The position numbers were made by a program, and so were the translations under genes. The notes beneath the pieces are model-generated. The model ran no database searches. It was not told the DNA's origin and worked only from the letters and a program-made list of their open reading frames with translations. Shown one piece after another: positions 18,911-44,067 of a stretch of DNA of 64,000 nucleotides (positions are counted from its first letter, which is position 1; every line of letters starts with the position of its first letter). Origin of the DNA: Romanomermis culicivorax (Eukaryota > Nematoda > Enoplea > Mermithida > Mermithidae); NCBI GenBank assembly GCA_963922205.1, contig CAWUHX010000509.1, forward strand, positions 1 through 64,000, written 5' to 3'.

Positions 18911-18939
18911 TACTTCTTTTATCTTATCAACAAGACAAA

Positions 18940-22991: not shown

Positions 22992-23579
22992 ACCAGTCGA
23001 TATCTCAGCATTAGTCTATGATCTGGCCAGGTGCTGCACCCCATCAGTGATCTTATTTGATCTCCCCAGGTGCTGTGCACCATCAGTGATCATCATTACT
23101 TGCCCCTCAGGTCTATAAAGAGGAGTATCGTCAATACTCTGACAGGTGAGAGAATTAGGATCTGGTAGGCCTGATAATGCATCAGCATTGTGGTTAGACT
23201 GACCTTTTCATGGCTGAATTGTCAGTTTGAATTCAGTGAGTGTGAGTCCCCATCCAGCTATCTGAGCAGAAGGGTTAGGTTTCTCCAACATTGCCATGAC
23301 AGTGGTATGGTCAGTCTGTACGACCACCTCATGTTGAAAGAGGTATGGTCAAAAGTGCTTGACGAAATGGACAACAGCGAGAGTCTCTAACTCTGTAATA
23401 GTGTAGTTCTTCTCAGCTGCCATTAACCCTCTACTGGCGTACGCGACAGGATGGTCGTATCCATTATGGTCCAACTGGCTCAGAACTGCTCCTATCCCTG
23501 AAATACTTGCATATGTTTGAAGGATGAAGGATTTCGTAAAGTCCGGATGGCGCAGAATAGGAGGGTTCCTTAACAGCCT
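22992..23579 (-). pseudogene. element 1 RNase H domain
   Basis: Follows the RT domain in the same order as other Ty3 elements. Visible motifs are ISGIGAVLSQLD, YASRGL, TELETLAVVHFVKHF and QTDHTTV. The first catalytic Asp of the usual TDAS motif reads Tyr here (QTYAS), and stops interrupt the frame around 23345 and 23205. The region 22992-23200 is a spacer with repeated GGTGCTGCAC-like phrases. Confidence 0.75.
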
Positions 23580-24476: not shown

Positions 24477-24966
24477 AGAGGTCAGTGAATGCGGCCAGTA
24501 GATTGAGTAATGCTGTCTTGTCCTGTGAGGAAATATCAGGAGATATCACAGCATTTGCTTGGACCCACTTCTGGTCAAGAATGGTATCAGATTTGACTGC
24601 CGATCCCCGTGAGGAATCAGTGTGCATCTGCACATGACCGATGGTTGTGTGCGGGTAGAGAACCACTGAGGGTGTACTCAGGTTAACTACCTGTAGGGGT
24701 ATGCGACCATTAGTCACAGTGCTCACAGTACCAGCAAAATATACGCTGCGTTGTTGTCCCAAGAGGGGCTTATGGAAGAAAGCTACCTCGGGCACATCCA
24801 CATATAGTGAAGGTACAGGTGCAGTAAATTGTGTCAGCGAGTGAGGTTCAGGGACAATCAACTCCTGCAAGGGCAGCGCACCATGAGCAGAGTGGAGATT
24901 GTGGATGAGGCCCTCACACAGAACCCGAAGTTCCTTGAACTGGAGAAAGGATTTCTCCCAGTTCAA
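24463..24966 (-). pseudogene. element 1 protease-RT linker
   Basis: Same frame as the two protease frames upstream, separated from the nearer one by a single TGA. It encodes the region normally found between protease and RT in Ty3 polyproteins and corresponds to 40250-40740 of element 2 (shared order: a proline phrase before a Leu-Tyr phrase, then a beta-rich segment, then LLNLLAAFTDLYAID against LLRFLSKYPTLYV). Confidence 0.75.
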
Positions 24967-24984: not shown

Positions 24985-25530
24985 TCAGAGGAAGTTAGTC
25001 CCCAAGACTAGTTCAGCTGAACAATTCTCTTGAATTTGGACCTGAATCTGTTCAGAGACATCAGCCACTGTCATCGTGACATAGGCAGCACCTAGCAGTA
25101 GAATCAGAGACCCATTGGCTGCTATGGGGCAAGCTCTAGTCTCTGTGAGTACCAAGTCAGGTAACTGGACTGCCAACTTGTGATCCAGGAGTGAGAAAAC
25201 TGCTCCTGTATCAATCAGAGCTTTGGCTTCCACCCAATTGTTCAGGAGAACTCTGATATGAGGGGTCCTCATTTCAGTGGGGTAGAAAGCTGAGGCTACA
25301 TGACCTGGATCAGGTGTAGGGTCACCAAAACTCGACTCTGGTGTATTGGTTTGCTTCGGTATCAGCAAACAGGTGCCTCTGAGTAACCCTACCAGAGCAT
25401 AACCAACGGATGATTCTGGATTGGTCCGAGGAGTGGGATGAACCTGAACAGTAAGTACATGATCCGATCGCTCTCCTGAGCTCTGAGTAGCGCCTAAGGA
25501 TTCGACTTCTGTGTCAGAGAGTGGGGGCAC
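24985..25530 (-). pseudogene. element 1 second retropepsin-like protease
   Basis: Aspartic protease domain with active-site ALIDTGAVFSLLD, flap-region strands, and the C-terminal LVLGTNFL that matches the ILGxxFL signature of retroviral proteases. An acidic, Ser/Thr-rich lead (PPLSDTEVESLG) precedes it. It is in the same frame as the first protease 25579-26478 and separated from it by one TGA at 25579-25581. It corresponds to the single protease of element 2 (LIDTGAMYSLID). It would cleave Gag-Pol as a dimer. Confidence 0.85.
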
Positions 25531-25578
25531 TTCTAGTACAGGGGATGCAGGTGCATCTGAATCACTAGGCTCGCGGAA

Positions 25579-26478
25579 TCAACTTTTCCCTAGTGTAACC
25601 GGAGTATTTCCAGGTGGGGATCGAGGGCAGGTTGACCCGGACCTGGCCATTAAATGAGGACTGGCCCATCTAGAAGAGGTCCGACTACCTCTGGTCGACC
25701 CACATGATGAGGCGACAGAGGAAGCCCGCGAGGGTGGCCGAGAAATGGACGAAGTCCTTGATCTGGATCGAGACCCGGACCTGTGGGAGGCCCTTGATAG
25801 TGAATGTGTGTTCTCCCACGAGGGTTCGACCTGATCAATCTCAGCCGCTGTCAAGAGAAGTGGCATTTCTACCGCATTCAACGGACAGACATATTGTTGG
25901 TAATCAAATGTGATATTCTGAAATTGTTCTAGAAAGTCCAATCCCAGAATCAGGTCGACCAGTGCCCAGAAAGGAGACATAGTCTTACACACATGGAGAT
26001 GCATATCCACTCTCGTGTGTGGCTGACAGGTTCCAGGCAACATGATCTCATACAGTCCCGATAGGAGAGTATGGACGGCTTTCCCATTGATACTCATCAA
26101 TGGGTTAAAGTCATGCTGTTGCTGGAAAGTTATCGCCACTTTCGGACTTTCTTTAATCAAGGCCTTGTGGAGCGGTTGACTAATGATGGTCCGTGGACAA
26201 CCAGTGTCAAGGAAAGCCCGAGTTCCCTTGGCATCAACCAGCACAACAAAACACGCAGTGATTCTGTCTAACTGAGTCGGCACATCGTTCTGCACGTAAT
26301 GAAAACTGACCCAACATTGAACTTTCTGGAGGAGGTTCAACAGAGAGTATTGGCTAATAAACCAGATCTGTCTTTTGCGCAGGCGGTAGCTGAGATAATA
26401 GGAGAACCCAACATAGATGAGATATACTGTACCCGCCAGCATTGCCAGGGTAATGAGGGTGTTAAAGATCAACTGCAC
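25579..26478 (-). pseudogene. element 1 transmembrane segment fused to first protease, with Ser-Arg tail
   Basis: A 299-codon open frame. Residues about 3-30 form a hydrophobic membrane segment followed by RLRKRQ, a basic stop-transfer. Residues about 85-190 form a complete retropepsin: AFLDTGCPRTIIS active site and LILGLDFLEQF near its end. Residues about 230-280 are dense in Ser and Arg (SGSRSRSRTSS type). The membrane segment is placed like the anchor of the envelope-like protein encoded immediately upstream in another frame, and the same arrangement is found in element 2. If translated as it stands, the protease would lie on the cytoplasmic side. A single TGA ends the frame before the second protease. 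Confidence 0.8.
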
Positions 26479-26486
26479 CAGTCCAC

Positions 26487-27674
26487 TCAGAAGAGACAGG
26501 TCAGACCCCCGAGTCTTCTGAGTGGAAGAGACAGGTCAGACTGCTGATACTGCCAAGTCAGATCAAGGTAGCATTGAGCGTGGGAGCAAAGCTCAAGCAA
26601 CATGAAGCAAAAATTGTTAATCTCCGACTCCTTGATCTGCTGAGCCAGATAGTTCAGTTTGGCATTGACAGGATCCGAATGTGAGTCCTTTGCCAATCTG
26701 AACAAATGTTGGGTCAAATTGAATCTTCCGTGGATGGGTAGAAGAAGACCCTGATCCGTCCGCACTGTGTTTAACCCAAGGTCGGGACACAACTGGAAGA
26801 GGCGAGAGTTTCCCAGAATCTTCAAGGCAACTTGCAAATCATCGATAATGATATGGTTCCCTGACACAGAGGCAGTGTAATTGCCCTGGGGATGATAATG
26901 ACACTGTGCTGTAAAGTTTGTTGCAGGCCAAACGATTACCCCGTCCAGAGTAGTGCATTGACTTGCAGTGGGACTGCATCCACCTACATCTCCTAAGGTA
27001 CTTAGAGCTGTAGTGCCATCCCACGAAGCGACCTGTCCTTCCTCGATGAAGAAGTTAGTCACCCTCTTGCAGATGTCACTGCAGCACCATGAGTACATCA
27101 CGTCCAGCATTTGGTTTGTGCTATAAAAGCCAGGGCGTATTTCCACAAGCATTTGTAAACCAAACACCTTCATGCGATGTGCTAGCGTACAAGCCGGAGG
27201 TGCTAGATGCTGAGTGGTAATGACATCTGCAGTAATGCCCCTAGATTTGAAAAAACCAGTGTTGGTGCACACTTTACAGTTTCCCAAAGTGCACTTCCAC
27301 GCTACAGTAGTGATTGGATCAGAAGGAAAATACACTGTAACATTCATGCACCGGGGACTCCATGAAGATTTTGGTGGCTTGCATTCAACTTTTTGAGGTA
27401 GCTCAAGTGGATGACTGCTTCTTGAAAGACCACAAAATTGGTACTGAGTAGCATGTATTGCAGAGCTCATTCCTAAGAACAGTAGTGTCACGAAGGCCCA
27501 ATTTACTATGTACAAGCTATTTACAAATGGTGCTCGTAAATATACACCAATATGTACAGTGTCCGCCCATCGGGCGGGTTCATTCTTCGCCGTCGTCATC
27601 AGACAATATCGGTTCCTCCTCAGGGAAGTCGATGACCAAGCCTCCGAACAGGTGGACTTAGCAAAGAACGCCAA
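26487..27674 (-). pseudogene. element 1 envelope-like secreted glycoprotein
   Basis: A long open frame between gag and protease. A likely start ATG is at 27599-27597, overlapping the end of the upstream frame by 20 bases. A signal peptide (NWAFVTLLFLG, cleavage near SAIHA) is followed by a Cys-rich ectodomain with many Cys and several N-glycosylation sites. Motifs shared with element 2 include VCTNTGFF and GQVASW. The frame ends just after a CHAQCYLDL-like phrase, so roughly 180 residues that follow in element 2 are missing; a direct repeat GAAGAGACAGGTCAGAC flanks the break (26489-26541). The overall pattern looks like a viral fusion glycoprotein. Similarity to chuvirus-type glycoproteins is my suspicion only; a profile search is needed. 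Confidence 0.7.
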
Positions 27675-28408
27675 TCTTCAGGGACCACGGTGCAGTTGCC
27701 GTCGGGAATAGTGATGCCTCGATGACGCTGACGTCATCGTTGACAGTGCCCAACATCTCTCCAAAGGCGTTGGCGACCATGGGCGGCGGTTTGGCGGCGG
27801 CCACTGGTTGCTGCTAGGCAATCCCCGCCAGTGTTTGGGCTCCTGTCGTCGTCGTTGACAGTAACGCCGCAAAAACTGCTGTGGGCTGCGCGTTGCGACT
27901 CGCTTGTTCTACAGCGCGGCAGACGGCGTCCACTGCCAGCAATGATGGTTCAGCGTCCAACAGGATCTTGTCCACCGGGGTGGCACGAATAGTTTCGTCC
28001 GCGATAAACTCGAGCGCTCATCGAACAATGTTGGCCCCAATATCCACAGCGCCGCTGGCACCGATAGCACCATGTCAGCAGCCGTAAGCGCCTCAGCCTT
28101 GAACGGCTCGTTGAGTAGTGCCCATGGGAGGTGCCGATACTTTTAGGCCAAATCCGTTGACCAAACAGCCTGCATCGCGTCGGTGACAGATGAGGAATCT
28201 GTAAATGAGAAATCATTAAAGCTGGTGACTTATAAGGATATCTGATTTTCGGACCTGAAATGTCAGAAAAAGAAGGTAGTATACCTAGCAGATTCATCGA
28301 TTACAATTGACCGACGACCTCCAATGCGGAGTCTGTGGGAATTCTGGGTGGCGGTCCTTGGGCAATAAAATGGGCTGGAGGCACCAGTGTACCTTCTGTT
28401 GGTTGATA
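27580..28408 (-). pseudogene. element 1 Pro/Ala-rich linker after gag
   Basis: Between the nucleocapsid region and the envelope-like frame lies about 800 bases with coding-like but broken frames: an Ala-rich stretch around 27680-27960 and an acidic end (FPEEEPILSDDDGEE) that stops at 27582-27580, inside the first codons of the envelope-like frame. Similar Pro-rich sequence occupies the same place in element 2 (37560-38059). It might be the C-terminus of Gag. No enzyme motif is visible. Confidence 0.5.
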
Positions 28409-30097
28409 CTACGCGACCACGCTGACATCGCCAGTCATTTTCGGCGTCATTGAGGGGTTTACGCTGACCATAATTGCGTATTTCCGCGGTGGCGGCGGCA
28501 AGGCCGACAACTGAGTGGGTGCCGAAACCACTGCGGCTGCTGAAAACCCATTACTGATTACACAGACAGGATAACACAATTGTGAATGATCCGCCAGGTG
28601 TTCAGCCAGAACTTCATCATCCAGATCAAACATATCTGGGTGAGGAAGACCGTCGGCAGCCCCTATGGCATTATTTTGCTGCGGGGTTGGCTGATATTGG
28701 TTCCCTGTCCCACAAGGAGGTGGATTAGCATATCGCCGAAAATTCCCACTTGCCCCCTGAGGAGAGTAACCAGAATTACCAAAGTTAGTCTCACCAGGCA
28801 TTGTCCGAGTCCGATGTGGGCAGGCAGTGGCCCTGTGCACTCCTATTTGTCCGCAGTGCAGACAGGGTCTGTCGCATTAGTCAGTCGGGTGCACCCTTGT
28901 TCGACAAAAATAGCAACAGCCGGCACCAGTGGCGGTGGTGTTGCTGGGGCTGACGCTGTCGGGATGTTGGGCCCAGCAACTAGCATCGTTGTGGGTACAG
29001 CGTCCATGGTAGGAGCACATCTGTAAATGTGCCCCTGAGGGGCGATCACCAGCATTTTGGACGCGCACTGACAGCATCGTTGACCGCATCAGATTTCTCT
29101 GAGGCTGTGCTGTTTGCTGAGCTGTGAGTCGCGCAACATGAGCTATAAGCCGGGCCATCTCCGATTGTAAACGTCAAATCTCGTCAGACAGCTTTGCTGA
29201 CAGACGTTGAGCGGTGCCCGTTTGATTCGACATTGACCTGACGTTGTCAGGGGTCCTTTGTTCTGAAGAGAAAACATCATTAGATGGGGCAGTATACCTA
29301 ATATCATCCCGAAAAATCTGTGATTCTGCATAACAAACTGCTTTGAGAGTCTCTTCAAGAGTTGTAAACTCCCTGAACTTGATACTATCTCGAAGGACTG
29401 GTTTCAATCCTCGCAGAAAGATAGGTTTTATAATTGAATCCCTAACATCAGTCGCGAGATCTGGATAAGCCACCCTCGACAGTCTCTTAAGGTGCTCAAG
29501 GTAGACTATCGCAGACTCAGTTGGCTTCTGCAGATGATCTTGGATCAACTGCTGATGCAGATCTGAGTCACGCCCTACCGGAAAGTCTTTCCTCGGAAAA
29601 GCCATGAACTCTTCGTAGTGGGTAGGCTGTGGAGTACCACTGCTGAAGTCCCGGTAGGATGCAAGAGCAGGACCTGTTAGGCAAGACTCTAGAAACGCGA
29701 TTTTATATGCATGATCTGTTTCTGTTACGCCTTGAAGTGTAAAGAAACGGGTCAAGTTGAATATAGAATCCATTATAGACTCACCAAAAGTGCCCGAAAA
29801 GGCAGGAGGGGCCATGAAGCTGGACACAGGAGGGTGCCTCCTGCCATTCATAGCCTCCAGCTTTTGGTTGAGCGGTCCAAGGGCATTCTCAAATGCAGCT
29901 TGGACCTTATTCTTACTCTGTGAAGGTAGATCAATTTCTGACTTCATAGTTGAGGGTTCGTCTTCCTGTAAGGCAGCTAAGACTGATAATTGTGCCTGTG
30001 AAGCTATTCGATCAAACAGAATAGAGATAGGCTCACTGGTCTTTTTAAAACTAGGACTGAGACGGCAGGAACATCTAGGTGTCTCTATTTTGTGCAA
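28409..30097 (-). pseudogene. element 1 Gag (capsid and zinc knuckles)
   Basis: One reading frame with only two stops (TGA at 29174-29176, TAA at 28877-28879) codes for a Ty3-type Gag. Residues about 95-260 resemble a capsid (FSGTFGESIMDSIFNLTRFF, ALASYRDF, RDSDLHQQLIQ, YLEHLKRLSRVAYPD). The following part has a His/Cys phrase (CSYHGRCTHNDASC), then a zinc knuckle CYFCRTRVH interrupted by the TAA, then CLHCGQIGVH...C. The frame continues into a Pro/Gln-rich tail with DLDDEVLAEHLAD. Gag packages the RNA and builds the particle. The stop at 29174 could have come from CGA by methyl-CpG decay (inference). Confidence 0.88.
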
Positions 30098-33000
30098 ATG
30101 AGGTAAGTATTACTCTTGTGGTCTCGCAACGAAGAGGCGCGGGAATTACGAGATCGTTTACGCGATGGCGTTTTTGATGCTTTAACGCTTGTTCTTTACA
30201 ATAACTAGCGACCACTCGACGATGGGGCTAGAAAAGAACAAGGTTTTAGCCCTCAGAACGTCCAGAGAGATAGGCTAACTCAGAAGGGAATTTATTTGGT
30301 TGCCTATGTACTTGGAGAGGGGGTAACCCATCTGTAAAGAGAGGGAAATTATAGGTCCCAAATTTTAGTGAAGAACGATGGGGCTAGACCCAATTATTTT
30401 AAACCAAAAGTGAAAAAATTTTGAATGAAATGGTGGTTTCCCAACGGAAAAGAAGGATGACGTAAGGACTCGTGTACGGATAAACCCACCAAAAAGGGAA
30501 TTTTATTTGGAAGTTAAGTCCGTTGTGCTAGTTTACAAAACCTTGGATATGGGAGAGCTCCTAACCGGCAAAGTCCTACTTACCAGGAGTAGCGCCTGAA
30601 GTAGCTTAGGAATTAATAAGTAAAGGAGGACAACTTGAAGTAAACTTAGTGGGTGTAAATAGATAGGGACAAAATTAGTTTACACACCAGACTATGCAAA
30701 GGAGATGCACTATTATGCAATCAGCCTCACTCACTAGGAGCAGTTGCGATCTCTGAAAAGTGTTATGACTAGACAGGAGGTTCCCAAGGGGACGACATTC
30801 GCATGTATTCTACAACCCTGCCCAAAATGGGAATGCGGGTTTTGAACAGAACGGGAGCTCTCCAGGAGCATTATATACAGCTGGTGGCCGGGATTCCAAT
30901 CACTGAGATGAAGTGAGGTTTGCTCGGTCACCAGTTGGAGGCAAGAGCACCAGGTACCAAGGTGCTATTCTGACACACTCAGTCAGTTAATGGGTGGCAT
31001 GGGGGTCCTTGGCCCAGCTGTGCCTAATGGGAGAAGGGGATATGCAGGCTTCCTCCTATGATTCGAGGCGGGGCTCGAAGCATCTTGAGATCAGGGGTAC
31101 AGTCTGTCTCGATTAAATGAGTGTAAAGTGAGGAGCTAAGGTGGACTCAGTTGTAATGTGTTTAGGTGGACTCGAACACCTTCCCTTAGGGGGACTAGGA
31201 GTATTATGCTATATGGACAACCAACGGAGGCGGACTCAGGATTAAGGGCCACTCTAGCGGGGACATTATTAGGCCAGCTAACGAAGGCGTTTGAGTGTAA
31301 AGAATGATTACAGAGGGGCCTTTTACACTTTAGGCCCAACTGGTGGCTGTGCCGTAATTCCTGAGGAATTATTCCGGTGGGGACACTAAAGAAGATCATA
31401 GATGAGAAAGAAATGCGAGAATTTAGATAAGAAATTTACAGGGAGGTTGTCAACCCTTGCAGTTGTTAGACACAGGCAGTACTGACTGCAAATGCCTAAC
31501 AGTTGCGTAAGTTGAACAACCGATTTAGCTGAGGCTGAGTGTAACCTGTTCAAACCTGCAGTTAAAGCTTTGAAGGTAGTCACATGCTGATCAATCAGTG
31601 CCGCTACCTGGGCGGACAACCTGATCAGTATCATGGATGGAGTGCATCTCAGGATGAGTGAGCATGTCAACTGATGTTTCCCAGGCATCAGTGACACACA
31701 GACACAACCCTTGGACAAGAGCAGTAGGTGAAAGGGTCATATTCCAGCAGTCACCTATGACTCAAGTAGCATTTGTAAACCCACAGTAACCTGGTGCTGA
31801 CGTCAAAAGATGTGATATACACCACCACACACTCGGTGCTGACCTCAGGTGACTGGGATGTAAGTGGCATAGTCTCATATTGCAGTATGTACACCAAAGG
31901 TAAGAGCCTACGGCCACAGACCCCTTACGGCAACACAGAGCATTGCCATTGCTGATGCCAGAATAGGACTGTAAAGTCTCAATTCCGATACTGCAATATA
32001 AACATTATCATTGCGGACATCAGTAGGTAGGGCCCTAAGGCCAGCAACCCTGCTATGGCAACACGGAGCATCACTGTTGCTGACATTAAAAGGTAATAAC
32101 TGAGTTTCAGTTATCCTACAACAATGATATGAGATGCAGTTGTTGCAGATGCCAGATGTGTGGTTTGTAAGGCCTCACATCTCCGAACAACAACATGTAG
32201 CATTGTTGTTGCTGACATCAAAGACTGAAACTGGTCTAACCGACCAGTCCTAGTGCAACAACACGAACCTCTGCTGTTGCAGGCGTCAGAGAGACAGTGC
32301 CGTATGATCACCATCCTGCAATAACAACATGTCAGGTTGCCATTGCTGACGTCAGAGGTGGAGCCAGAGGGCCACCCACGCCTTAAAGCAACAGCAAGGG
32401 ATGCAGCTGTTGCAGATGCAGGGGGAGGATACAGAGAACCAGCAACCCCTTAATGGCTACATGATATGCAGCCATTGCTGACGTCAGAGGCATGACCCAG
32501 CTAGTCAAGCCTCGGTGCAACAGCAGCATGTGAGGTAGTTGCGGACGTCAGAGGTAGGGTCCCTAAGACACATCACCTCATAACAACAACACTGTAAACT
32601 GTTGTTGCTGACGTCAGTGGTCCGGATCGGTAAGATCATCACCATGTGCAATTACCTAAAGAGAGCGAAGAAGACCATACAGTAGGTGAAAAATAATAAT
32701 AATGACCTACTGAAGGTTCGCCAACTATGACGTATGTGTGACTGGTAAAAGAAATTTTTTTTTTCAGTTGAGAATGTTTGATTTAGTAGAAAGGAAAAGG
32801 ATGAAATTTTAATTTGTTTGTTTAGAAAGAAGAGAAAGTAGGTTATGAGTTTTTATTTGATTTGATTTTTGAGATGAGAAAATTTAGTGGGTGAAAAAAA
32901 GTTATTATAATTGGTGTCACACATTACGTATAGATGACGGAGAAAATAAAAAAAAGAGTAAATAAAATAGAATTTGAGGCTGAAGAGATAAGCAATGTGA

Positions 33001-33931
33001 TCTGCTAAGTACGGTGTTATATGTGTCAACAATATGATTTGGCTTGTTTGGCCGTAAAATGTGCAACTTGGCTAGTGCCCAGTGAAGATAAGAAAAGTTT
33101 TGAAAAAGTGTGTTGACACAAATACCAGACACAGATAAAAAATCACGACCACACTTGACATCCAGAATCAAGAGTGGAAGGAGTACTGTATCTCGTGATC
33201 AGAGACCCTGAAACCCTCAGGGGCTGTAAAACCTCATGGGCTGTGATACTCAAGTACCCATACCCAAGTATACTGTAGTCAGAGTACATGCAAATCGCAG
33301 TCATACTGTAACCAAATAGCCATACTGCGGTACAGTAACCTACTAGATCACAAGCAGTGAAGGGAGGCCCCAATTTTAAAGAAAATGGAAAAAAACATAA
33401 AAGAAGAAAGCTCAGAGGAGATTTAGGCAGAATACTCTATTCAAACTCGACTCTGGGAAATTGTGACTCTTGGGGATTGACTCTGGGGGAAAACCTAACA
33501 CCAGGGGATTTATTAAAGCTTACAGGCAGTACAACACGCATAAGGCGATAAATTACCCACAAGAATCATCAATTTGATCACTTGTTGGGTCTAATCCCGA
33601 CTTACAGTAATAAAACTCTGCTCAAACACGGTGCTGTTTGAGTTGGTGACAAAACTTGAACATAAGGGCCATTTCGGACCTAAGGAGCAGTGTACTTGCT
33701 TAAGGGACTTACAAGACTTACAAGAAGGCAAAAGATCATCCTAAGGGTCAGTAGTCCTACTCAGAATGCGAATTAGCTGACCTGAGAGAGGTTTCCCCAT
33801 TCAAGTGGCTATTCTCATGATTTGAGAGAGGTTTCCCCACTCAAACCAAAAGTTTACCAAATTGAAAGAGGTATCTCCACTCGAAAGGGTAAAAGGTTCG
33901 TTCCTAAGGACTGTGAAGCCAGACTTAAAGG
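30098..33931 (-). other. element 1 long untranslated leader
   Basis: 3.8 kb between the primer site and gag without a credible gene. Most LTR elements have leaders of a few hundred bases. It includes the hairpin array at 31940-32650, three copies of a GAGAGAGGTTTCCCC-type phrase at 33780-33880, and otherwise unique-looking sequence. Such leaders can carry packaging, translation or enhancer functions, but nothing here proves which. Confidence 0.7.
31940..32650. repeat. array of about eleven 66-bp hairpin units with CRE-like cores
   Basis: The word TTGC followed by TGACGTCA or a variant recurs at 31949, 32011, 32077, 32143, 32209, 32277, 32343, 32410, 32475, 32539 and 32605, giving spacings of 62-68 bases. 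Just before each lies an inverted repeat ending in that TTGC: for example GGCAA/TTGCC, GCAAC/GTTGC, CAACAA/TTGTTG, GCAACAGC/GCTGTTGC, ATGGCT/AGCCAT, AACAACA/TGTTGTT. The arms differ between units but stay complementary. Sequence between units is poorly conserved. Two weaker GGTGCTGAC units lie at 31793 and 31835. On the element strand the hairpins would be in the RNA leader. Confidence 0.85.
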
Positions 33932-33951
33932 TCGATTTTCCAGCCTCGCCA
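33932..33951 (-). other. element 1 primer binding site
   Basis: Directly after the 5' LTR, on the element strand, the sequence begins TGGCGAGGCTGG. TGG at this place pairs with the CCA end of a tRNA and the preceding bases look like a tRNA T-arm on the opposite strand (GTCGATTTTCC). The tRNA was not identified. Confidence 0.65.
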
Positions 33952-35378
33952 TGTCACATTAAACAAAATTGGAGCCAAGTCACATTAACTGAATTGGTGA
34001 TCAGTCACATTGATGGGAAAACCCATACCATATCCCATAGGGAATATGGCCATGACACTGCAAGTGACATGCTGTGACCCCATTGGGTGGCTCTCTAATA
34101 CTTTCATTTCGGGAACCTAACCCAGCTGGTACTATCACAAGAAAACCCATGGTGTACCTCAGCCTTGTCTTAGGGTTCAGCTGTAGAATAATGGACAACG
34201 CGGCTAGGTCAGGGGTGGCAATCCCTAGTCGTCATTCACTGAGAATGAGGGACTGGGCCATTCCTGGAATGGCTTACTCTAGGGGACCCAATTGTCAACC
34301 TAAATCCCCTAATTGGCCCTGACCTTAAATGTCCAAGGGCTGTCTTAACTGAGGGTACTCTCACGGGAAAACTAGCTTAAGGAGGATTCCCACAAATATA
34401 CCCTCAACAATAATAACCCGAGAAGACTCACTAAATCCTCTTCTCAAGGCACTCGGCGCTGGGCCACAGGTTCAAAGGTCAAAACCTGGGTCCTGCGGAT
34501 GGCGGGGGAACAGGTTCGACAATCCCAAGCAATTCAGCATGGAGGGTATGTGAATGTGAGTCCGCCCGCGACAGTATCAAAACGTTCCTCGGGGAGGCGA
34601 CGGGGGTTCTCGATCAACAGGCGACAGGGTAAACTCCTAAGGATGGGTTACGGTAACTGGCAACGCAAAGGGAGACCGAAGGAGAATATGTAAATTTATT
34701 ATAAAGGCGGTTGACGAAGGTACAATATGTAAATTATAATAAAACGATGCAGGCAAATGCAGGAACCCAGGCTGTAAAACGCAAAAGATTAGGCCCAAAA
34801 ATGAGTGCAAAATTAACGAAACAAGCCCATTTAAAGGGCCCCCTAATCTACAGTATGCCTTGGGTGGAGCTAGGACACACCCAAGCTAACTTCTGCAGCA
34901 GAAATGGCTGCAGAAGATGCCTATGGTCACATAGACATTTTCTAGTTCACTATGTTAAGCATTGGGCAAGTTTTAACTCTCCATGCTTAGCATAGGAACG
35001 TCATCTAGTGAGAATTTCCAACTTGGCGTTTCACGATGTGAATTGTCGCTAGTTTTTACTGATAAGAGGTGCATGTTGTGCTCCAATTACAGTGATGAGC
35101 TCGGAGAGCTTATCTTTAACGGAAATTCTTGACTAGCGGGTTACATACCATAGTCTATGTGCGTAACGAAAAAATAACAAAACGTAATGGAAATAAAAGT
35201 GTGAAAGTAAAATAGAAATGAAACATAAAAAGTACACACAGAAAATGCATGTAAAAATTATAAAAACTAAACGTAAAATTGACATAAATTACTGTAACAC
35301 AAAACGTGGTGAAAAACATAATGGAAAAAATATGATGTGAATCACATAAAGCTGGGCGAAATTTGTCGGCACGTGACA
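33952..35378 (-). repeat. element 1 5' LTR
   Basis: 1427 bases, TGTCAC...GTGACA, matching 19064-21144 apart from the two later inserts. In the first 260 bases I count about twenty differences by eye, so insertion was not recent. As the upstream LTR on the minus strand it would hold the promoter, but no confident TATA box was found on that strand. Confidence 0.92.
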
Positions 35379-36121
35379 ACATTCCTATTAATTTATTTGA
35401 AGTGTTCTGTTTTGATCGGCCCGCACCCCAGTAGCAGTTATTGACCAAATTAAAGACGCTCTAATTAATTTGCACATTGGCACCTGGCCCCAGAATCCAC
35501 ATGTAAACACACATTCTGTAGCTATATTAATTCTCCCCAAAAATCGTAAATCCACCTGCCCTGTAATAGAAAGTAGAAGCCCAACCCAGACACCAGTCTC
35601 AAGTGGAACAGTAGTTGTGGTTCATACAGAAGCATATATACACACAAGTAATAAATACAGAAGCACATAGGTGTGGTTAAGTCCATCCTAAGCAAGGAAG
35701 CAAGTGTAATAAAAGTGTGGAATGCATACGATAGGTAAAAAGCATTGAAGGTGTGGTTAAGTAAGCATGCAGTATACGAAAGCATAAGAAGCAGGAAGTG
35801 AAGATTGGTGGAAAGTGAATTGGGGAGGAGACCCCCCACATACCAAGGGAGTGGCCAAAGCAGAAGCCGTATATAAAGCAGAGAGAAGCGTAAAATCATC
35901 AGAATTGAATCCATGTTGTATTTTATGCCAAGCTTTTTTGTGAAGCAGAAGCCATTCATTTTGTTGTGCATCGACGTAAGGAGTCTGTCGGTGATTTGTT
36001 TATATTTGTGTAATATTATCATATCACTCATTGATCATTCGTGTCCCCATGGAAAGCACGGAAGAGAAAGCACGGGCGTTTTCAGAGTCAAGTAAAAGTA
36101 TAGATAAATCTGGGCATTACA
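35379..36121 (+). repeat. element 2 5' LTR, second piece
   Basis: Continues the LTR begun at 18940 after the 4-bp duplication ACAT. It matches 43330-44067 and ends GGGCATTACA. Contains TATATAAA at 35870-35877 and AATAAA near 35648. Together the pieces are about 863 bases without the duplicated ACAT, against 856 in the 3' LTR. Confidence 0.92.
35870..35877 (+). promoter_or_regulatory. TATA box of element 2 LTR
   Basis: TATATAAA, preserved at the equivalent place in the 3' LTR (43823-43830). Its position about 245 bases before the LTR end fits an LTR promoter for the plus-strand transcript. Confidence 0.65.
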
Positions 36122-36539
36122 TATTTTGAAGGCCGTACCCTACCGTAACCATTGAAACTCCCTGCCCCATTAAGGTGCATCCTTTTCCAGGCAACCCTAA
36201 GAAGTAATCATACACATAAGAGCTATCTCCTACAGTAGAACAATTAATTCTTAAATATCAAACTGGAAAGTACCTTTAACGAAACATTAAGTGATACCTT
36301 TTTACAAATCAAACCTGAAGCAAAAACTGAGACCTCAAGGCAAAATCCCAATGCAAACTGAGAATGACCCATCAAACTCAGGATCACTTAGAAGAAATCA
36401 TTAGAGAACAAATAAACAAACCATATTCCAAGCATTTTTGAACCCTCCGAACTTAATTCAACCAAAATACAGTAAACCCCACCCTAATTGATGACTTAAG
36501 AACAGCCAATATCCGCATTAACATGGCAAACAATTTTTA

Positions 36540-37560
36540 TGTGAAAGGTACAATATTCACGGGTGGAGTGACCCAATGTTTTGGTGAATGAAGTAAACAA
36601 TTAGAGCAATTCATTATACTCCAAGGCATGAAGGATACTGACGGACAATTAAAGTTAGTATGTTTAGAAATTCATTTCGGCAGAGCAGCATTAGCAAAAT
36701 TCAACAGTTTAGCAGATTCTGAAAACCCGCCCCATACATATGAGCAGTACAAAATCGCATTACATTCTTCCTTCCCAAATAATAGAGACACTGAGTTGCA
36801 TCAACAATTTTTACGAGAGAGAAAACAAAAACGATCAGAAACAGTAACAGAATTTTTGTTCAACCTTGAGGATTTAGCAACCCTCGCCTACCCCAACTTT
36901 AATTCGGAGGTGCCAGAAATGATCATAAAACCCCTTTTTGTTGAAGGCATGCAGGATAAAATTAGGGAAGCATTAAGTATAGAAGGTTCACAACCCTAAA
37001 AGAAATGTCAGACGAAGCAGCTTACATCGAACAGTAAATTCTTAGAAATGAACCAAAATCCAACAACCTACCATTCATACCTCCCAAACCCAAACCCATC
37101 TTTTCATTAACAAACAACACTGACCAACAAGGCCTTTTGCATCACTTAAAACAGCAAGTAAAAGATTTACAGTCGCAGATCAAACAAAATTCACAACCCC
37201 AGCCACAGAGTAACAACAACAGTTTTAATAACAACAACGGTTTCAGAAACAACAGCAGTTTCAGGCAGCCTACATGTATTCAATGGGGCCAAATTGGTCA
37301 TGTAGCTTGAAACTGTAACTCATCAGGAACATGAAAATCATGTGAAATCTGTTTTTACAATAATCACTTTACCCAGGACTGCAAGAGCCGATGCATCCAT
37401 TGTTACCAAACAGGCCACAGATCCGACCACTGCATAACTAAAACTTATTCCAATGTTCAGTGTTTTCTATGTAAACAGAGAGGCCACACAAGCAGGTATT
37501 GCCCCAACCAACAGAGTTGTAATGTACAAAATTGTATTGAAGACAGACAACCCCAGCCCC
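36540..37560 (+). pseudogene. element 2 Gag with zinc-knuckle array
   Basis: Decayed Gag. The best frame, 36628-36999, carries capsid motifs homologous to element 1 (RDTELHQQFLRE, TVTEFLFNLEDLATLAYPNF, MIIKPLFVEGMQ). After frame breaks and an Asn/Gln-rich stretch (37180-37260), three clean CCHC knuckles follow between about 37335 and 37510 (CEICFYNNHFTQDC, CIHCYQTGHRSDHC, CFLCKQRGHTSRYC), with a fourth degenerate one before them. Element 1 has fewer recognisable knuckles. The protein would package element RNA. Confidence 0.85.
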
Positions 37561-38059
37561 TAATGAACATTGATGATCCCGCCCTTCACTCCAAACTGCC
37601 CACCATACATAGCCGCCCCCAGCATACTTTAGGAACCATCATGCGGGCCTGCCACTGATGCAGCAAAGAGGAATACATTCACAATCTGGACCTACCAGAC
37701 TGGTGCAGCATGTCACCACCTTTTACACCACCCCCAAGCCATTACCTACCATTCCTGCCACCTACCAAATCCCTAGAAAATGTCCCTGCCACTCGCCCAC
37801 CAACCAAGAAAAGCCGAAATCTTCTCTCCTTACTCCATGGGCTAACCAACAAACCGTACTAATTTCACCCCTGCAAAACCCTACTCCCCACCCCCAAAAG
37901 TATGAACATTCTGACCCAATCATGCAACCCAACTTCTCAAATTCTGCAAACTGTTCAGATATCAAACCAACCAACCCCACCACCGATGCCTACACCACAC
38001 TGACGCGGGGCCCACCAAATCACACTGACCGCCAAAACACAACATGCTGCCCCCAATAA
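37561..38059 (+). pseudogene. element 2 Pro-rich linker after gag
   Basis: A Pro/Thr-rich stretch (open in one frame at 37658-38059) follows the zinc knuckles and ends 16 bases after the ATG of the envelope-like frame. It takes the place of the Pro/Ala-rich linker in element 1. No motif recognised. Confidence 0.45.
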
Positions 38060-39486
38060 AAATCATTATTGGTTTCTTTGTTGTGTTATACTTTGTATAA
38101 TAATTCCATCATCTTGTCATGCGCAATTTCAGCTCTGTGGAACCTCATTGAGCCATCATTTGGTCAGCATACCAAAAACTGTATCATGTATGCCCCCTTC
38201 TACAATAGACAAACCCATACAGACATTTGGAAAAATCTATATTCCCTCCACCAAACCTCACATAACAGACGCATACAAGTGTAGTATTCCCAAAAGGAAA
38301 ATTTGTACCAATACTGGATTTTTTGGGTCAAAAAGCATCATTTTGGACCAAACCAAAATGGAAAACCTAACCCCACATGTTTGCAAGGCAACCATTATAG
38401 GCAAAGAGCACAATAGACAAAAACAAACAACTTGCTAAGCGTAGAATACACATGGTGTTGCACAGACTATTGTATGTCTGTCACTAATGTCATTGTAGAA
38501 ACTGGACAAGTAGCTTCATGGAATAGAAAATCAATAACAGGTACATTAGGCGACCTGCGGTCATGCAAGCCAACATCAGGTCATAGTGTAACAGCCGATG
38601 GAGCCAATATCTGGAATGAGACCACTTTTGAAAACTTATGCCCCTTCAAATACAAAAATACTTACCCCATGCCCTCTTTTCCAACCTAAACTGCCCCCAA
38701 ACCCAAGACAGTGATCTAACTGAACAAGGTATTATTGTACAGCTAGACAAAAGAACACCACACCACAATGCTTTTTTAACCCCACAACTTAATGAAACCC
38801 CAACTACATTATAGGACTTCGATGATTTTGAACCCATCAATGCAAAACTAGATTACCTAGCGGACAAAATTCAGGAATTCGAAATTCAAAATTTCAAAAA
38901 CGAATGGAATGAGTTATGCAGACAAGCTCAATGTCATCTTGATTTAGTGTGGCAAATCTTGCCCCTTGATGCAACACTTGGCGCGCGTGCATTTTTACAA
39001 AGGATGGACATAATTGCAGAATTCACAGGAGATGCCCTCACAATCTGGCCCTGTAAACAGGTAAATGCATCAAAAGTCTTTTACAAACACAAAATCAATG
39101 AGACTTGCTACAAACTCCTACTTATCCTTGTAGGGACTGACATTATGTTCTCAAATTCAGGAGGGAATGATTTGACCCCTTTCTCCCAAAGTGTTGACTG
39201 TCACCACATGCATGTTGCCTTATACAAACAAAATAATACATGGATCAGTGAAACAGGATTCCCACATGTAACTGATCTCCCCTTAGAAATAGTATGGAAT
39301 GAAAACTTCTCCCTCTTACACTTCAATACACCAACAATTTTTCATGACCAACTTGCAACAATATCAACAAACTTACTTTTTTTGAAGCAAAACATCTACA
39401 AAACCACACCCTCCAAAGCATTGTTAACAAACTCGTTAATTACACCACCCAAATGTCTCTTAATTCCGATACAGTATACACCATGA
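38044..39486 (+). pseudogene. element 2 envelope-like glycoprotein ectodomain
   Basis: Begins with ATG at 38044 and a hydrophobic signal-peptide-like stretch (KIIIGFFVVLYFV). Frame breaks follow, then 38148-38438, 38432-38689 and 38947-39486 code for the same protein as 26487-27674 of element 1: CTNTGFFGS, WCCTDYC, GQVASW, TLGDL, and a Cys-rich region. The last part, missing from element 1, includes GARAFLQRMD, a GDALTIWPCK phrase and further paired Cys. This arrangement of signal peptide, Cys-rich ectodomain and downstream anchor is that of a viral envelope protein. The frame of the anchor is offset by -1, with a run of seven T at 39377-39383 at the place where the frames cross. It is a broken relic. 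Confidence 0.7.
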
Positions 39487-40262
39487 TCTTAGGCAGTGGT
39501 CAAGCAATCAGCAACACACTTTCCGGTGCCGGTCGAGGCATAGAGCATGTCGTAACAAGTACTACCCAAAGCCTCACGGATGGGTTGAATATATTACTAA
39601 AAGGGCCCTTGCAAATACTTATCAACCTAGCTGTCATCATTGTTGTCATCGCAGGCATCTTTTATTTCTTCCTTATTTTGTGTAAATATTTCCCTTACCC
39701 TAAGCATCACATTGCCGATGAACATACATACAAAATGCCTTTAGATAACAGGCGGTTACCCGAGACCATCCATCCCTCATTTGGTCATGCCCTCTTAGAA
39801 TTAGCCAATTGTCATGAAGCCCAAACTCAACAGAAATACGTCCTTGTTGACATCAATACTCCAAGGACCCCTGCAATCGAACTTATCAATCAAATACACC
39901 AATCAGTCTCCAATAAACCCCCAACAACCATACTTGAGAAACATACCCCTCACATTCTAATTACACTGAACGGGAAGCTATTCACCAAAAGCTTGATTGA
40001 CACTGGTGCCATGTACTCCCTCATTGATTCCCATATTGCTGAAGCCCTACAGATAGACATGAAACCTCCACTAGTGCAAGCAAAAGCAGCAAACAACTTT
40101 CCCATCCACTTCATAGGAACAACTTTTGTTACAGTAATCGCCCAAACTATCCAAGAAACTATAATGGTACATGTCCAAAAAGATTGCACAGCAGACATAC
40201 TTCTTCAGCCAATTTTTAGAATACACCATCAACAACCAAAAGTCCCAAGTAAAATTTGGTGA
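39453..40262 (+). pseudogene. element 2 membrane anchor fused to protease
   Basis: A single uninterrupted frame of 269 codons. Residues 1-48 look like a membrane-proximal stem with many Ser/Thr and Gly. Residues about 50-75 are a strongly hydrophobic transmembrane span (LAVIIVVIAGIFYFFLILC). A cytoplasmic segment follows, then at about residue 175 the protease active site SLIDTGAMYSLID. Because no stop lies between the span and the protease, the two are physically one product. Open coding for the stem extends upstream to about 39360 in the same frame. Element 1 shows the same join. The end of the frame at 40262 is shifted against the RT frame. Confidence 0.85.
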
Positions 40263-41420
40263 TGTTATACTCCCTTGTGATGGCCTAGAATACAGCCCCC
40301 TGTCGACCTGTTGCGGAATCTATCTGTATGAGAAATTAGAATTACCACCACAAACTGTTACCAAATTCACTGTCCCCTTACCCAAATCATACCTACACAT
40401 CAACCAACTCGAATTTACCCCAAAAGCTAGACAAAATGCTAAAGTCCATTTCCCCGCTTGCATATCAGGGAATCAAAACAGTCATATACGCATTTCGGTC
40501 TTAAATACACAGGACATTCCCCAGACCCTCTACTCTGGCACATGCATTGGCCCAGTTTCAGGGTTCATTCAAAAAGCAAACTCGCCCACCAAACTACTTC
40601 TTCCTGTGCCGAACAAGCAGAACGGCTTTGATACTTTCACATGGTTAAGAGAAAACGTTAATTTAACCTCAAGCAACCTCACTGAAGCGGAGAAAAATCA
40701 ACTCTTACGCTTTCTATCCAAATACCCCACCCTATATGTGAACTCCAAAATGGATGTAGGTCAAACCACACTTGTCTCCCACAACATTGACACTGATAGC
40801 TCCCAACCCATACACAGACATCTTTTTGGGACATCCCCAAAAGAAAAACAAATTATCCAAGCAGAGGTGGAACAACTCGCAGCAGCTGGTGTAATTAGCC
40901 AAAGCAATTCCCCGTGGTGTACCAACACAGTTCTTGTCCCCAAAAAAGATGGTGGACATCCCCTATGCATTGATTTCTGGGGCCTGAATAAAGTGACCAA
41001 AAAAGACACATACCCACTACCCTGTATTGACAAAATCCTAGACACCTTGCATGGAACGAAGTACTTTACATCCCTAGACCAGTTTAATGCATATTACTCC
41101 ATCTCAATTGCAGAAAGTGACCAGAAAAAACAGCCTTTAACTGTTCAGCCAGACAATACCAATTCAATTACCTCCCTTTTGGCCTCACAAATTCCCCTGC
41201 CACATTCTAATGGTTAATGGACGTTATCCTTTCTGGATTGCAATGGAACACCTGTCTCATGTACCTCAATGACGTCTTAGTCTTGGCACAATCCCATGCT
41301 CAAATGTTAAGACACTTAGACATCATCATCACTCGTTTTTCAAAAGCCTGATTAAAACTTAATATACAGAAATGCAAATTTTGTCAACCCCAAGTCCAAT
41401 ATCTGGGCCACAAGCTCGAA
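40171..41420 (+). pseudogene. element 2 protease-RT linker and reverse transcriptase
   Basis: 40171-41217 is one open frame: linker, then RT motifs SPWCTNTVLVPKKDGG, CIDFWGLNKV, YPLPCIDKILD, FTSLDQFNAYYS. After a shift near 41140 the second half carries the active-site region, in which YLDD is replaced by YLND (about 41262-41273), so a catalytic Asp is lost. Thumb motifs (KCKF, VQYLGHKLE) follow to 41420. Clearly homologous to the element 1 RT. Confidence 0.88.
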
Positions 41421-41990
41421 AGAAGTCAAATCATTTCTCGACTTACCCTCCTATTACCGCAGATTCATCCCCAGTTGCTCTCAAATCTCCACCCTACTTA
41501 CTGCATTACTCAAGAAAAACTCCGAATTTTCGTGGTGCCCCGAACAACAGACTTCCTTTGATAAACTCAAAGAGTTGCTCATTCATGCACCAGTCTTTCA
41601 ACACCCGGATTTTAGCAAGCCCTTTAGTTTGCAAACTGACGCATCAAAGCTCTGAATTGGTGCAATTTTAAGCCAACTCGATAGCAAAGGTCTTGATCGG
41701 CCCATCACTTTTGAGAGCCCTACATTAAAACCCACACAACGTAACTACCCCATAACAGAATTAGAAACCCTTGCAGTAGTCAAATTCATTAAACATTTTC
41801 GCTCCTATCTGTTCCAACAACATGTCATTGTCCACACAGACCATACTGCAGTCCAGGCAGTCCTGTGAAAAGAAAATCCCTCCCCTCAAATTGCCCATTG
41901 GGGACGAGTCCTCTCTGGCATTCAACTTGACATTCGGCCTAAGAAAAACATGGCTAACGGGAATGCAGATACCATCTCCCATTTCCCATC
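41421..41990 (+). pseudogene. element 2 RNase H domain
   Basis: Broken frames with PDFSKPFSLQTDAS (first catalytic Asp retained), IGAILSQLD, TELETLAVVKFIKHF and HTDHTAVQAVL. At least two stops interrupt it. Follows RT in the usual order. Confidence 0.75.
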
Positions 41991-42089
41991 CCGCACAGCA
42001 AAACCATCTTTTGATATTGATCACCTTGAAACATGACCTGAGATATCTACTGTCAATACCATCCTTGAAGCTGAAGCCTCCGAGCAGGA

Positions 42090-43150
42090 AGGAGAACAGA
42101 AAAATTTCACAGAACTCCAACCCACTGATCCAACTGTCAAGGCAATCTTGACCAAACTTACCCATAAACATCCCCTTACAATGATCAAATTCGCAGTTTA
42201 TCACAATATTCTATTTCCTATAATTGACAAGCAACCGAAACTATACATCCCAAAATCACAAATCCATGATCTAATTGCAGCTCACCATGACAGCAAGTTT
42301 ACAGGCCATTGCATGGGGCTATTACCCCTAACTGAGGGAGGGAGTTGATTCATTGTCATATTTATTGACTATTTGACCAAATATGTGGAGGCCTTCCCAA
42401 GCCCTGACATCACAGCCACCACCATTGCCCAGTTATTTGTAAACAAAATTGTTTGCCATCATGGCTCTCCAAAAATCATCCACTGTGATCATGCATCAGA
42501 TTTTGTTTCTGATCTTTTTACCTGAATCACCGACCTGTGCAATACCCAGAAAGTTCACACAACTCCATATCACCCTATTGCCAATGAGGAAGTAAAACAC
42601 TGTAACTAAACCCTCGCCATCCGTATCGGCATGTATATCAACTCCAAACATACTGATTGGGACACCTATTTACCCTTCGCTGTTTTTTCAATCACCATTC
42701 ATAAAAATGATAGCACTTCCAACCCCCCAATTCGAATTACTTCATGGTTGACAGCCCAGTTTACCATCTGACACAGCATTAAATTTTCTGCCCACCTCCT
42801 ATATGGTCGACCTTGATGACTACGCTCTCGGTGTCAAATCTCATTTTACTCAAGCCCTCTCCACTGTTCAGAAAAATTTACAAAAACCACAAACCCAATA
42901 TACAGTTCAGTACAATAAACATGCCCATGATGTCCACTACCAGTCAGGTGATCTTATTTTATAGAAAAATAATTCTTGCAAGCAAAGGCTTACCCCTAAA
43001 TTTTAACCCCACCAAAATGGGCCCTATACAGTCACCAGCTTCCTATACCCTAATGTTACACCCAAACATTCCCTCAAGAATACCACTTTTATGCTCCATG
43101 TAAATGAAACAACCCCTTTCTACCCCCAAGCAGCTTCTACCAAAATTACC
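42090..43150 (+). pseudogene. element 2 integrase
   Basis: Begins with the zinc domain (AAHHDSKFTGH), but the Cys pair half appears deleted, since GGS...FIVIFIDYLTKYVEAFP of the catalytic core follows almost at once near 42340. The second catalytic Asp is in HCDHASDF and the Glu in NEEVKHCN. A C-terminal domain at 42813-43103 resembles that of element 1 (YNKHAHDVHYQSGDLIL). Several stops and shifts. Confidence 0.82.
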
Positions 43151-43198
43151 CCGACCACTTCTCACCCTCAAACCCCTTGAATGAGGACGTTCAACTTC

Positions 43199-43211
43199 AG
43201 AAGGTAGGAAA
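43199..43211 (+). other. element 2 polypurine tract
   Basis: AGAAGGTAGGAAA lies directly before the 3' LTR start TGTGATG, the expected place for the plus-strand primer in reverse transcription. Confidence 0.65.
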
Positions 43212-44067
43212 TGTGATGTAGATGCTAGCGCATGGTTGTAAATTCAAAATGTACGCTATGCGTTATTTATTACTGCATATAAATTTATTATATAATTCAT
43301 TGTCTCAAGGATGTCTGGATTTAACATGTTGACATTCCTATAAATTTATTTGAAGTGTTCTGTTTTGATCGACCCACACCTCAGTAGCCGTTATTGACCC
43401 AATTAAAGATGCTCCAATTAATTTGCACATTGGCACCTGGCCCCAGAATCCACATGAACACACATATTCCGCAGCTATATTAATTCTCCCCAAAAATCGT
43501 AAATACACCTGCCCCGTAATAGAAAGTAGAAGCCCAACTCAGACACTGGTCTCAAGTGGAACAGTAGTCACAGTTCATACAGAAGTATATATACACAAGA
43601 GTAATAAATACGGAAGCACATAGGCGTCCTTAAGTCTATCCTAAGCAAGGAATCAAGTGTAATAATAGCATGGAAAACATATGATACATAAAAAGCATTG
43701 AAGGTGTGGTTAAGTTAGCGTACAGTATACGAAAGCAGAAGAAGCAGGAAGTGACGATTGGTGGAAAGCAAATCCGGAAGCAGACCTCTCACGTACCAAG
43801 GGAGTGGCCAAAGCAGAAGCGGTATATAAAGCAGAGAGAAGCGTAAAATCGTCAGAATTGAATCCATGTTGTATTTTATTTTAATGTTTTTGTGAAGCAG
43901 AAGCCATTTATTTTGTTGTGCATCGACCTAAAGAATCCGTCAGCGAGTTGTTTATATTTGTGTAATATTATCCTATCACTAGTTTATTGTTTGCGTCGCC
44001 CTGGACCATAGAGAAGCACAGGCGTTTTTGGAGTCAAGTAAAAGTATAGATAAATCTGGGCGTTACA
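43212..44067 (+). repeat. element 2 3' LTR, intact
   Basis: 856 bases from TGTGATGTAGATG to GGGCGTTACA. It contains in one piece what is split in the 5' LTR, and so serves as the empty-site reference for element 1. TATATAAA is at 43823-43830. CAAA follows at 44068-44071. Confidence 0.93.

What the first reader, a model, noticed from the sequence alone, without database searches (positions are those of the whole stretch)
26487..43211. Two related Ty3 elements carry an envelope-like gene between gag and pro-pol
In both elements the order is gag, zinc knuckles, Pro-rich linker, signal peptide plus Cys-rich ectodomain, membrane anchor, protease, RT, RNase H, integrase. The ectodomains are homologous (CTNTGFF, GQVASW and WCC motifs are shared), and the two elements differ in LTR sequence and orientation, so the layout is ancestral rather than a rearrangement of one copy. 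Retroviruses and known envelope-bearing Ty3 lineages such as errantiviruses place envelope after pol. I do not know of a described lineage with this order, but I could not search. If real, it is a separate solution to making an enveloped particle.
Basis: partly seen in the sequence, partly recalled or inferred. Interest (0 to 1): 0.88.

Follow-up and report, generated by a model that had tools for sequence, protein, structure and literature searches.

The report
Retroelement with envelope inside its polyprotein
Two old virus-like jumping genes in an invertebrate genome belong to a recently active group that carries a virus-type membrane-fusion protein in the middle of one long protein, between the shell protein and the copying enzymes; a similar layout was reported once before, in giant planarian elements.

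Summary
Both window elements are Ty3/Gypsy elements with gag, a glycoprotein-like region, then protease, RT, RNase H, integrase. In the same genome 27 of 27 mapped relatives have env before protease (25 of 27 also gag upstream); in 9 of 27 one open frame covers every matched part from gag to integrase, and its stop lies 9-31 bases before the 3' LTR, so no env follows pol. Six of 20 measured LTR pairs are identical. Env dN/dS is 0.07-0.11, near that of RT. Env matches Pfam PF24664 (Monjiviricetes fusion glycoprotein, E 8e-20 to 4e-19 in four families) between a signal peptide and one anchor. One metagenomic protein shares env-protease-RT order, so the layout is ancestral. Best reading: a membrane-threaded Gag-Env-Pro-Pol polyprotein, flavivirus-like in layout; processing and particles are inferred. 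This is a compact variant in another animal, probably a nematode. Element A lacks the core of its ectodomain and lies inside B's 5' LTR.

The parts
19064..21144 (-). element A 3' LTR, with later insertions inside
   Evidence: direct repeat of 33952-35378, 85-93% identity in three blocks
33952..35378 (-). element A 5' LTR; starts TG and ends CA on the + strand
   Evidence: flanking ACAT at 19060-19063 and 35379-35382
29174..30109 (-). element A gag (capsid)
   Evidence: Pfam Ty3_capsid E=1.5e-5, below its cut-off; matches gag in 19 of the 20 loci
28409..28876 (-). element A zinc-knuckle-like C-X2-C-X4-H-X4-C and start of linker
   Evidence: read from sequence; no Pfam hit
27450..27515 (-). element A signal peptide, ends SSAIHA
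   Evidence: read from frame 26487-27677; same place as in the other families
26490..27449 (-). element A ectodomain, truncated: core fusion part missing
   Evidence: 41% identity to L015 env over 324 columns, ends at residue 336 of that 646-residue piece
26404..26475 (-). element A membrane anchor, in another frame than the ectodomain
   Evidence: comparable by eye to the anchor of L015
25579..26403 (-). extra protease-like segment (DTG, ILGLDFL) and Ser/Arg-rich tail, seen only in A
   Evidence: weak Pfam gag-asp_proteas E=0.042; no tblastn match in the loci held; whole genome not searched
24991..25275 (-). element A canonical protease
   Evidence: PF13975 E=3.4e-5, below its cut-off; homologous to protease of the other families
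23580..24545 (-). element A reverse transcriptase
   Evidence: PF00078 E=1.5e-27
23286..23579 (-). element A RNase H
21634..23015 (-). element A integrase region
18937..19063 (+). first part of element B 5' LTR, cut off by insertion of A
   Evidence: 18937-19064 is 90.6% identical to 43209-43336
35379..36121 (+). rest of element B 5' LTR
   Evidence: 87.8% identity to 43332-44067
36592..36999 (+). element B gag
   Evidence: Retrotrans_gag E=1.3e-4, below its cut-off; 71-81% identity to family-3 loci
37335..37658 (+). element B zinc knuckles
   Evidence: zf-CCHC E=5.6e-10 in relative L018
38061..38123 (+). element B signal peptide, ends SSCHA
38124..39608 (+). element B ectodomain, frame broken in several places
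   Evidence: PF24664 E=8.8e-9 at 38980-39297
39609..39677 (+). element B membrane anchor, same frame as protease
   Evidence: hydropathy in relatives
39936..40205 (+). element B protease
   Evidence: PF13975 E=9.3e-5, below its cut-off
40798..41568 (+). element B reverse transcriptase, broken frame
41575..41868 (+). element B RNase H
42037..43060 (+). element B integrase region
43209..44067 (+). element B 3' LTR

Best explanation
A and B are decayed members of a compact (about 9.5 kb) Ty3/Gypsy lineage that encodes Gag, an envelope glycoprotein of Monjiviricetes type (probable class III fusogen), protease, RT, RNase H and integrase as one continuous polyprotein in that order. Shown here: order, frame continuity, signal peptide plus single anchor, purifying selection, recent transposition. 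Inferred: the internal signal peptide threads the chain through the ER membrane during translation; Gag stays in the cytosol, the ectodomain goes to the lumen, the anchor stops transfer, and Pro-Pol stays in the cytosol. Signal peptidase frees the env N-terminus; the element protease separates Gag from the signal anchor and Pol from the env tail. This puts Gag and Pol inside and the fusogen outside a budding particle, like the capsid-signal-glycoprotein-anchor-replicase order of flaviviruses. The fusogen would serve cell-to-cell or soma-to-germline spread.
For: Of 27 mapped loci, 10 have the start points of all domain matches in one frame, and in 9 that frame covers every matched part from gag to integrase; in one of the 9 the gag match is short. 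74 of 131 scored RT copies lie in open frames of at least 2,400 codons. No stop between anchor and protease in the four family examples printed, so env cannot be a separate chain without cutting. Two hydrophobic segments and no others between knuckles and protease in 4 of 4 examples. PF24664 matches 6 of 6 env pieces. Env dN/dS 0.07-0.11 in 6 pairs that share one copy; linker 0.28-0.51, length differences 0 or 6 bases, no stop; RT 0.03-0.06 in 4 pairs. LTR pairs identical in 6 of 20 loci. No Met within 90 residues before mature env in 2 of 2 family-2 and 4 of 10 family-3 loci. P0015 has env-PR-RT-RH in one frame. P0004 keeps a signal-like and an anchor-like segment but no ectodomain.
Against: No RNA, protein or particle data. 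Met residues lie upstream of mature env in family 1 (-62, 7 of 7), in 6 of 10 family-3 loci (-17, inside the hydrophobic stretch) and in the one family-4 locus (-30, -35, -58), so separate initiation is not excluded there. The class III reading rests on weak profile matches (gB in PDB E=0.03; Pfam gB E=0.003-0.008), since structure prediction was off. No furin-type site in the four printed examples. The linker and tail are only loosely constrained. P0004's two hydrophobic segments barely pass the threshold (1.63 and 1.61 against 1.6). The first 20 loci were picked mainly for long open frames, so 9 of 27 is not a genome-wide rate.
Confidence: 0.68

Rival explanations
1. Env is made from a spliced subgenomic mRNA as in retroviruses and errantiviruses, and the frame continuity with gag is incidental.
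For: Metaviridae Env is typically made from a spliced transcript (PMC12992720 passages); Met residues exist upstream of mature env in families 1 and 4 and in 6 of 10 family-3 loci.
Against: No stop between anchor and protease in the four printed examples, so a spliced env would still run into Pro-Pol; linker frame kept without stops and with length changes of 0 or 6 bases; no upstream Met in 2 of 2 family-2 loci.
Confidence: 0.15
2. The glycoprotein is a passenger or serves another role (membrane anchoring of Gag-Pol, interference with related viruses), not entry.
For: P0004, inside the env-bearing RT group, keeps a signal-like and anchor-like pair without ectodomain; no furin site in four examples.
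Against: Ectodomain dN/dS 0.07-0.11 and many Cys, Trp and Gly columns invariant over six aligned pieces of four families, as expected for a folded, used ectodomain.
Confidence: 0.14
3. Rearranged or nested fragments make a false order in one locus.
For: A really is nested in B.
Against: Each element on its own, 27 other loci and an independent metagenomic protein show the order.
Confidence: 0.01
4. This is simply the Burro lineage of planarians, or its near kin, in another host.
For: Same in-frame env between gag and protease, also with mononegavirus glycoprotein hits (PMC6431247).
Against: Compact: about 7.8 kb between LTRs, and the scanned gag, env, protease-RT and integrase pieces of L018 show no BCL2, BIR, MATH or dUTPase match (linker and tail not scanned). 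Burro sequences could not be compared.
Confidence: 0.2

Closest known systems
Burro / GYPSM1 giant Gypsy-like elements of planarians (Arkhipova and Yushenova 2019, PMC6431247)
   Same: In-frame env homology between gag and protease in one polyprotein; hits to mononegavirus glycoproteins.
   Different: Burro exceeds 30 kb with a 4,873-residue ORF1 and several cargo domains; here about 9.5 kb, frames of about 2,330-2,580 codons, no cargo seen in the scanned pieces, another host.
Atlas virus and nematode belpaoviruses (PMC9094657)
   Same: Single polyprotein holding Gag, Pol and Env in a nematode.
   Different: BEL/Pao, Env last, phlebovirus-like class II Gc.
Anakin, mosquito BEL/Pao with a chuvirus glycoprotein (PMC7642597)
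   Same: LTR element that captured a glycoprotein of the same broad viral class.
   Different: BEL/Pao; the passages read do not state env between gag and pol.
TelKA elements of bdelloid rotifers (PMC5408684)
   Different: Paramyxovirus F type, third frame after pol (passages).
Errantiviruses (gypsy, ZAM)
   Same: Env-bearing Ty3/Gypsy.
   Different: F-type env, separate frame after gag and pol, spliced mRNA (PMC12992720 passages).
Flavivirus and hepacivirus polyprotein (layout only)
   Same: Capsid, internal signal peptide, glycoprotein, anchor and enzymes in one chain (recalled); HCV core ends in the E1 signal peptide (PMC5402940, start of abstract in listing).
   Different: Unrelated viruses; a resemblance of strategy only.

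Membership tests
Ty3/Gypsy (Metaviridae) | TG..CA LTRs with short target duplications | tested here: met
   4-base duplications in 18 of 20 loci by a script that required TG/CA and could slide the LTR ends by up to 6 bases; 11 of the 18 needed no sliding, the other 7 are weaker, 2 had none
Ty3/Gypsy (Metaviridae) | order protease-RT-RNase H-integrase | tested here: met
   27 of 27 loci; Pfam domains in L018 pieces
Ty3/Gypsy (Metaviridae) | RT within the Ty3 tree | tested here: inconclusive
   hits carry Ty3-type domain sets and one is named Ty3-gypsy; the tree used 56 of those hits and no reference set
Errantivirus | env as separate frame after pol | tested here: not met
   where the frame is intact to its end, the stop lies 9-31 bases before the 3' LTR in families 1-3
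Errantivirus | baculovirus F-type env | tested here: not met
   Pfam gives PF24664 and no F-type family up to E=1
Monjiviricetes-type fusion glycoprotein | match to PF24664 over its cut-off | tested here: met
   6 of 6 env pieces match, best E 7.8e-20; the four score 68.5-70.8 bits against 27 and cover 155-244 of 653 profile positions
Monjiviricetes-type fusion glycoprotein | signal peptide and one C-terminal anchor | tested here: met
   hydropathy only, 4 of 4 family examples
Monjiviricetes-type fusion glycoprotein | class III fold | not testable with these tools
   Structure prediction switched off; weak gB matches
Burro-type elements | env in frame between gag and protease | tested here: met
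   description in PMC6431247
Burro-type elements | giant size and cargo domains (BCL2, BIR, MATH, ankyrin) | tested here: not met
   about 9.5 kb; none in Pfam scans of four L018 pieces that leave out linker and tail
Burro-type elements | sequence kinship of RT and env | not testable with these tools
   no Burro sequence at hand
Belpaovirus (Atlas-like) | C-terminal Env in the polyprotein | tested here: not met
   Env internal in 27 of 27 loci

The most novel reading that the evidence does not exclude
A minimal enveloped retroelement whose whole virion comes from one polyprotein threaded twice through the membrane (Gag in, fusogen out, Pol in). It would be a flavivirus-like gene order invented by a reverse-transcribing element. 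In it the membrane hairpin itself is part of the assembly machine, since one relative (P0004) has dropped the ectodomain yet kept signal-like and anchor-like segments in frame.
Probability: 0.5. Interest if true: 0.8.

Novelty: new variant of a known kind. Interest (0 to 1): 0.62.

Why it matters
How LTR elements gain and express an envelope is an open question in retrovirus origins. This group suggests that a captured fusion glycoprotein can be kept for a long time inside the Gag-Pol chain, with equal Gag:Env:Pol output and no splicing needed. Unlike the giant planarian case it is compact, in at least four families, and young enough (identical LTR pairs, many open frames) that RNA and protein tests in the host are practical.

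Tried and rejected
A local rearrangement was rejected, since 27 of 27 mapped loci share the order. Gag or host origin of the middle frame was rejected (Pfam). A search of 5.8 billion proteins with A's 395-residue env frame scored none of 991 candidates at E<=0.01; a profile of six longer env pieces then gave 3 of 3,845 candidates, so the first miss is best laid to the truncated query. Two IMG/VR scans found no relative. An in-frame stop between gag and env in the mapped family-4 copy looked like a possible read-through signal; 2 of 2 other family-4 copies do not share it, so it is taken as decay. Whether A's extra protease-like segment occurs elsewhere in the genome could not be tested. Fold prediction was off. 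Placement in a named Ty3 clade was not tested.
Full report
What is in the window. Element B runs on the + strand and element A on the - strand. Both hold gag, knuckles, a glycoprotein-like region, protease, RT, RNase H and integrase in that order. B's ectodomain piece matches Pfam PF24664, Monjiviricetes_fusion, at E=8.8e-9. A's frame 26487-27677 gives no Pfam match: it aligns to residues 18-336 of a 646-residue env-to-protease piece of L015 and then stops, and the anchor follows at once in another frame. Both copies are broken. Whole-window self-comparison shows that A (19064-35378) lies inside B's 5' LTR: B's LTR start is at 18937-19063 and its rest at 35379-36121, with ACAT on both sides of A. 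The B LTRs are 87.8% identical and the A LTRs 85-93% in blocks, so these are old insertions, and A came after B.

Other copies. A search of the window's own genome (359 Mb, 595 contigs) with PF24664 gave 2,320 candidates, of which 68 were scored and 68 of 68 were over the cut-off; 0 of 14 control genomes matched, but the eight control genomes that the tool names are prokaryotes, so that is a weak control. I mapped 27 of the 68 places; the first 20 were chosen mainly for long open frames. Tblastn of 21 window pieces put env before protease, RT, RNase H and integrase in 27 of 27, with a gag match upstream in 25 of 27. In 10 of 27 the domain matches all start in one frame; in 9 of 27 that frame covers every matched part from gag to integrase, though in one of the 9 the gag match is short. 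Where the frame is intact to its end, the stop codon lies about 9 bases (family 1), 10 (family 2) or 31 (family 3) before the 3' LTR. LTR pairs were measured in 20 loci: identity 97-100%, exactly 100% in 6. An RT query found 8,059 candidates, 131 scored, at 99-100% identity; 74 of 131 lie in open frames of at least 2,400 codons. These frames were not each checked for env, but a frequent length, 2,486, is that of mapped env-bearing locus L018.

Families and spread. The 20 loci fall into family 1 (7: L009-L014, L025), family 2 (2: L015, L021; nearest to A), family 3 (10; nearest to B, gag 71-81% and env pieces 72-89% identical) and family 4 (L027). Env pieces of families 1, 2 and 4 are 55, 42 and 36% identical to that of L018, family 3. 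A profile of six env pieces found 3 of 3,845 candidates at E<=0.01: one from Romanomermis culicivorax, a mermithid nematode (P0001), one filed under a gammaproteobacterial MAG on a 1.4 kb contig (P0002) and one from JGI (P0003). A protease-to-integrase query gave 5,049 hits, of which the best 120 were listed. An env profile over those 120 and P0001-P0003 matched 1 of the 120: P0015, a 1,424-residue JGI protein with env, protease, RT and RNase H in that order. The top hit, P0004, has gag, knuckles, protease, RT and integrase but no env match; between knuckles and protease it has a signal-like segment followed by ATA and an anchor-like segment about 40 residues later, both just over the hydropathy threshold. 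In a quick RT tree of 64 rows (8 pieces of ours, 56 of the hits), the env-bearers plus P0004, P0007 and P0014 form one group (SH-aLRT 91; 100 without family 4). P0004 lies inside it by forks of 81-91, so loss of the ectodomain is the simpler reading. P0007 and P0014 are partial and their env state is unknown. The env tree of 11 rows agrees on families 1+3 and puts A with family 2 (85/92), but its deep forks are weak.

The glycoprotein. In 4 of 4 family examples exactly two hydrophobic segments lie between the knuckles and the protease: a signal peptide and, 505-520 residues later, an anchor followed by a tail in frame with the protease. PF24664 matches 6 of 6 env pieces (E 8e-20 to 4e-19 in the four listed). 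Weak matches to herpesvirus gB, Borna virus G and the rhabdovirus fusion domain point to class III. Within family 3, in pairs that share copies, dN/dS is 0.07-0.11 for signal plus ectodomain (6 pairs), 0.28-0.51 for the linker, 0.02-0.45 for anchor plus tail, 0-0.14 for protease, and 0.03-0.06 for RT (4 pairs). Between families synonymous sites are saturated.

How it probably works. Because nothing stops translation between anchor and protease in the printed examples, Env can only be released by cutting a longer chain. The signal peptide inside the chain gives the right sides: Gag and Pol in the cytosol, ectodomain in the lumen. A separate start codon is less likely: no Met in the 90 residues before mature env in 2 of 2 family-2 loci and 4 of 10 family-3 loci, and the Met positions elsewhere are not shared between families (20 of 22 loci given had the motif). 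Cutting, budding and entry are inferred.

What was known. [quoted passage not shown] PMC9094657 (passages) has a single Gag-Pol-Env chain in a hookworm BEL/Pao element. PMC7642597 (passages) has a chuvirus glycoprotein in BEL/Pao; PMC10084718 (passages) found no clear capture of such a glycoprotein by Gypsy. PMC5408684 (passages) has a paramyxovirus-type env after pol in rotifers. PMC12992720 (passages) gives errantivirus env after gag and pol. PMC12440569 (abstract and section 12) reports no envelope in Troyka. In the listings of ten paper searches I saw no compact element of this kind; the library misses most subscription papers and nearly all preprints.

Host. A COX1 copy reads without stops with AGR=Ser and TGA=Trp, and AAA falls where Lys is expected (recalled), as in many protostomes. 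With the Romanomermis hit closest to family 1, a nematode near the mermithids is likely; this is inference.

Noticed in passing
window 25579-26403 (-): Element A has an extra protease-like segment (DTG, ILGLDFL) plus Ser/Arg-rich stretch between anchor and canonical protease; not found in the fetched relatives.
   Followed up: partly
window 19060-19063 and 35379-35382: Element A sits inside the 5' LTR of element B, flanked by ACAT, so it inserted after B.
   Followed up: yes
G000 C180, C122, C81: Copies spaced about 8.37-8.41 kb apart, close to element length minus one LTR: tandem elements sharing LTRs, or an assembly effect; one frame on C122 reads 3,612 codons.
   Followed up: no
L009, L015, L018 and P0015, tail between anchor and protease: A short motif roughly (F/L)G.ALLELA recurs in the cytosolic tail across families.
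   Followed up: no
L009 1336-1408 and L018 1322-1433: Gag homology begins before the first ATG of the frame, so the start codon or a spliced leader is unclear.
   Followed up: no
P0004 residues 386-660: A relative with signal-like and anchor-like segments but no ectodomain between gag and protease.
   Followed up: partly
L036 (G000 C117:992573-993922): COX1-like frame readable with the invertebrate mitochondrial code inside a 1 Mb contig: mitochondrial insert or mis-join.
   Followed up: partly
window 46048-46228 and 46790-46993: Short repeated arrays with reading frames beyond element B.
   Followed up: no
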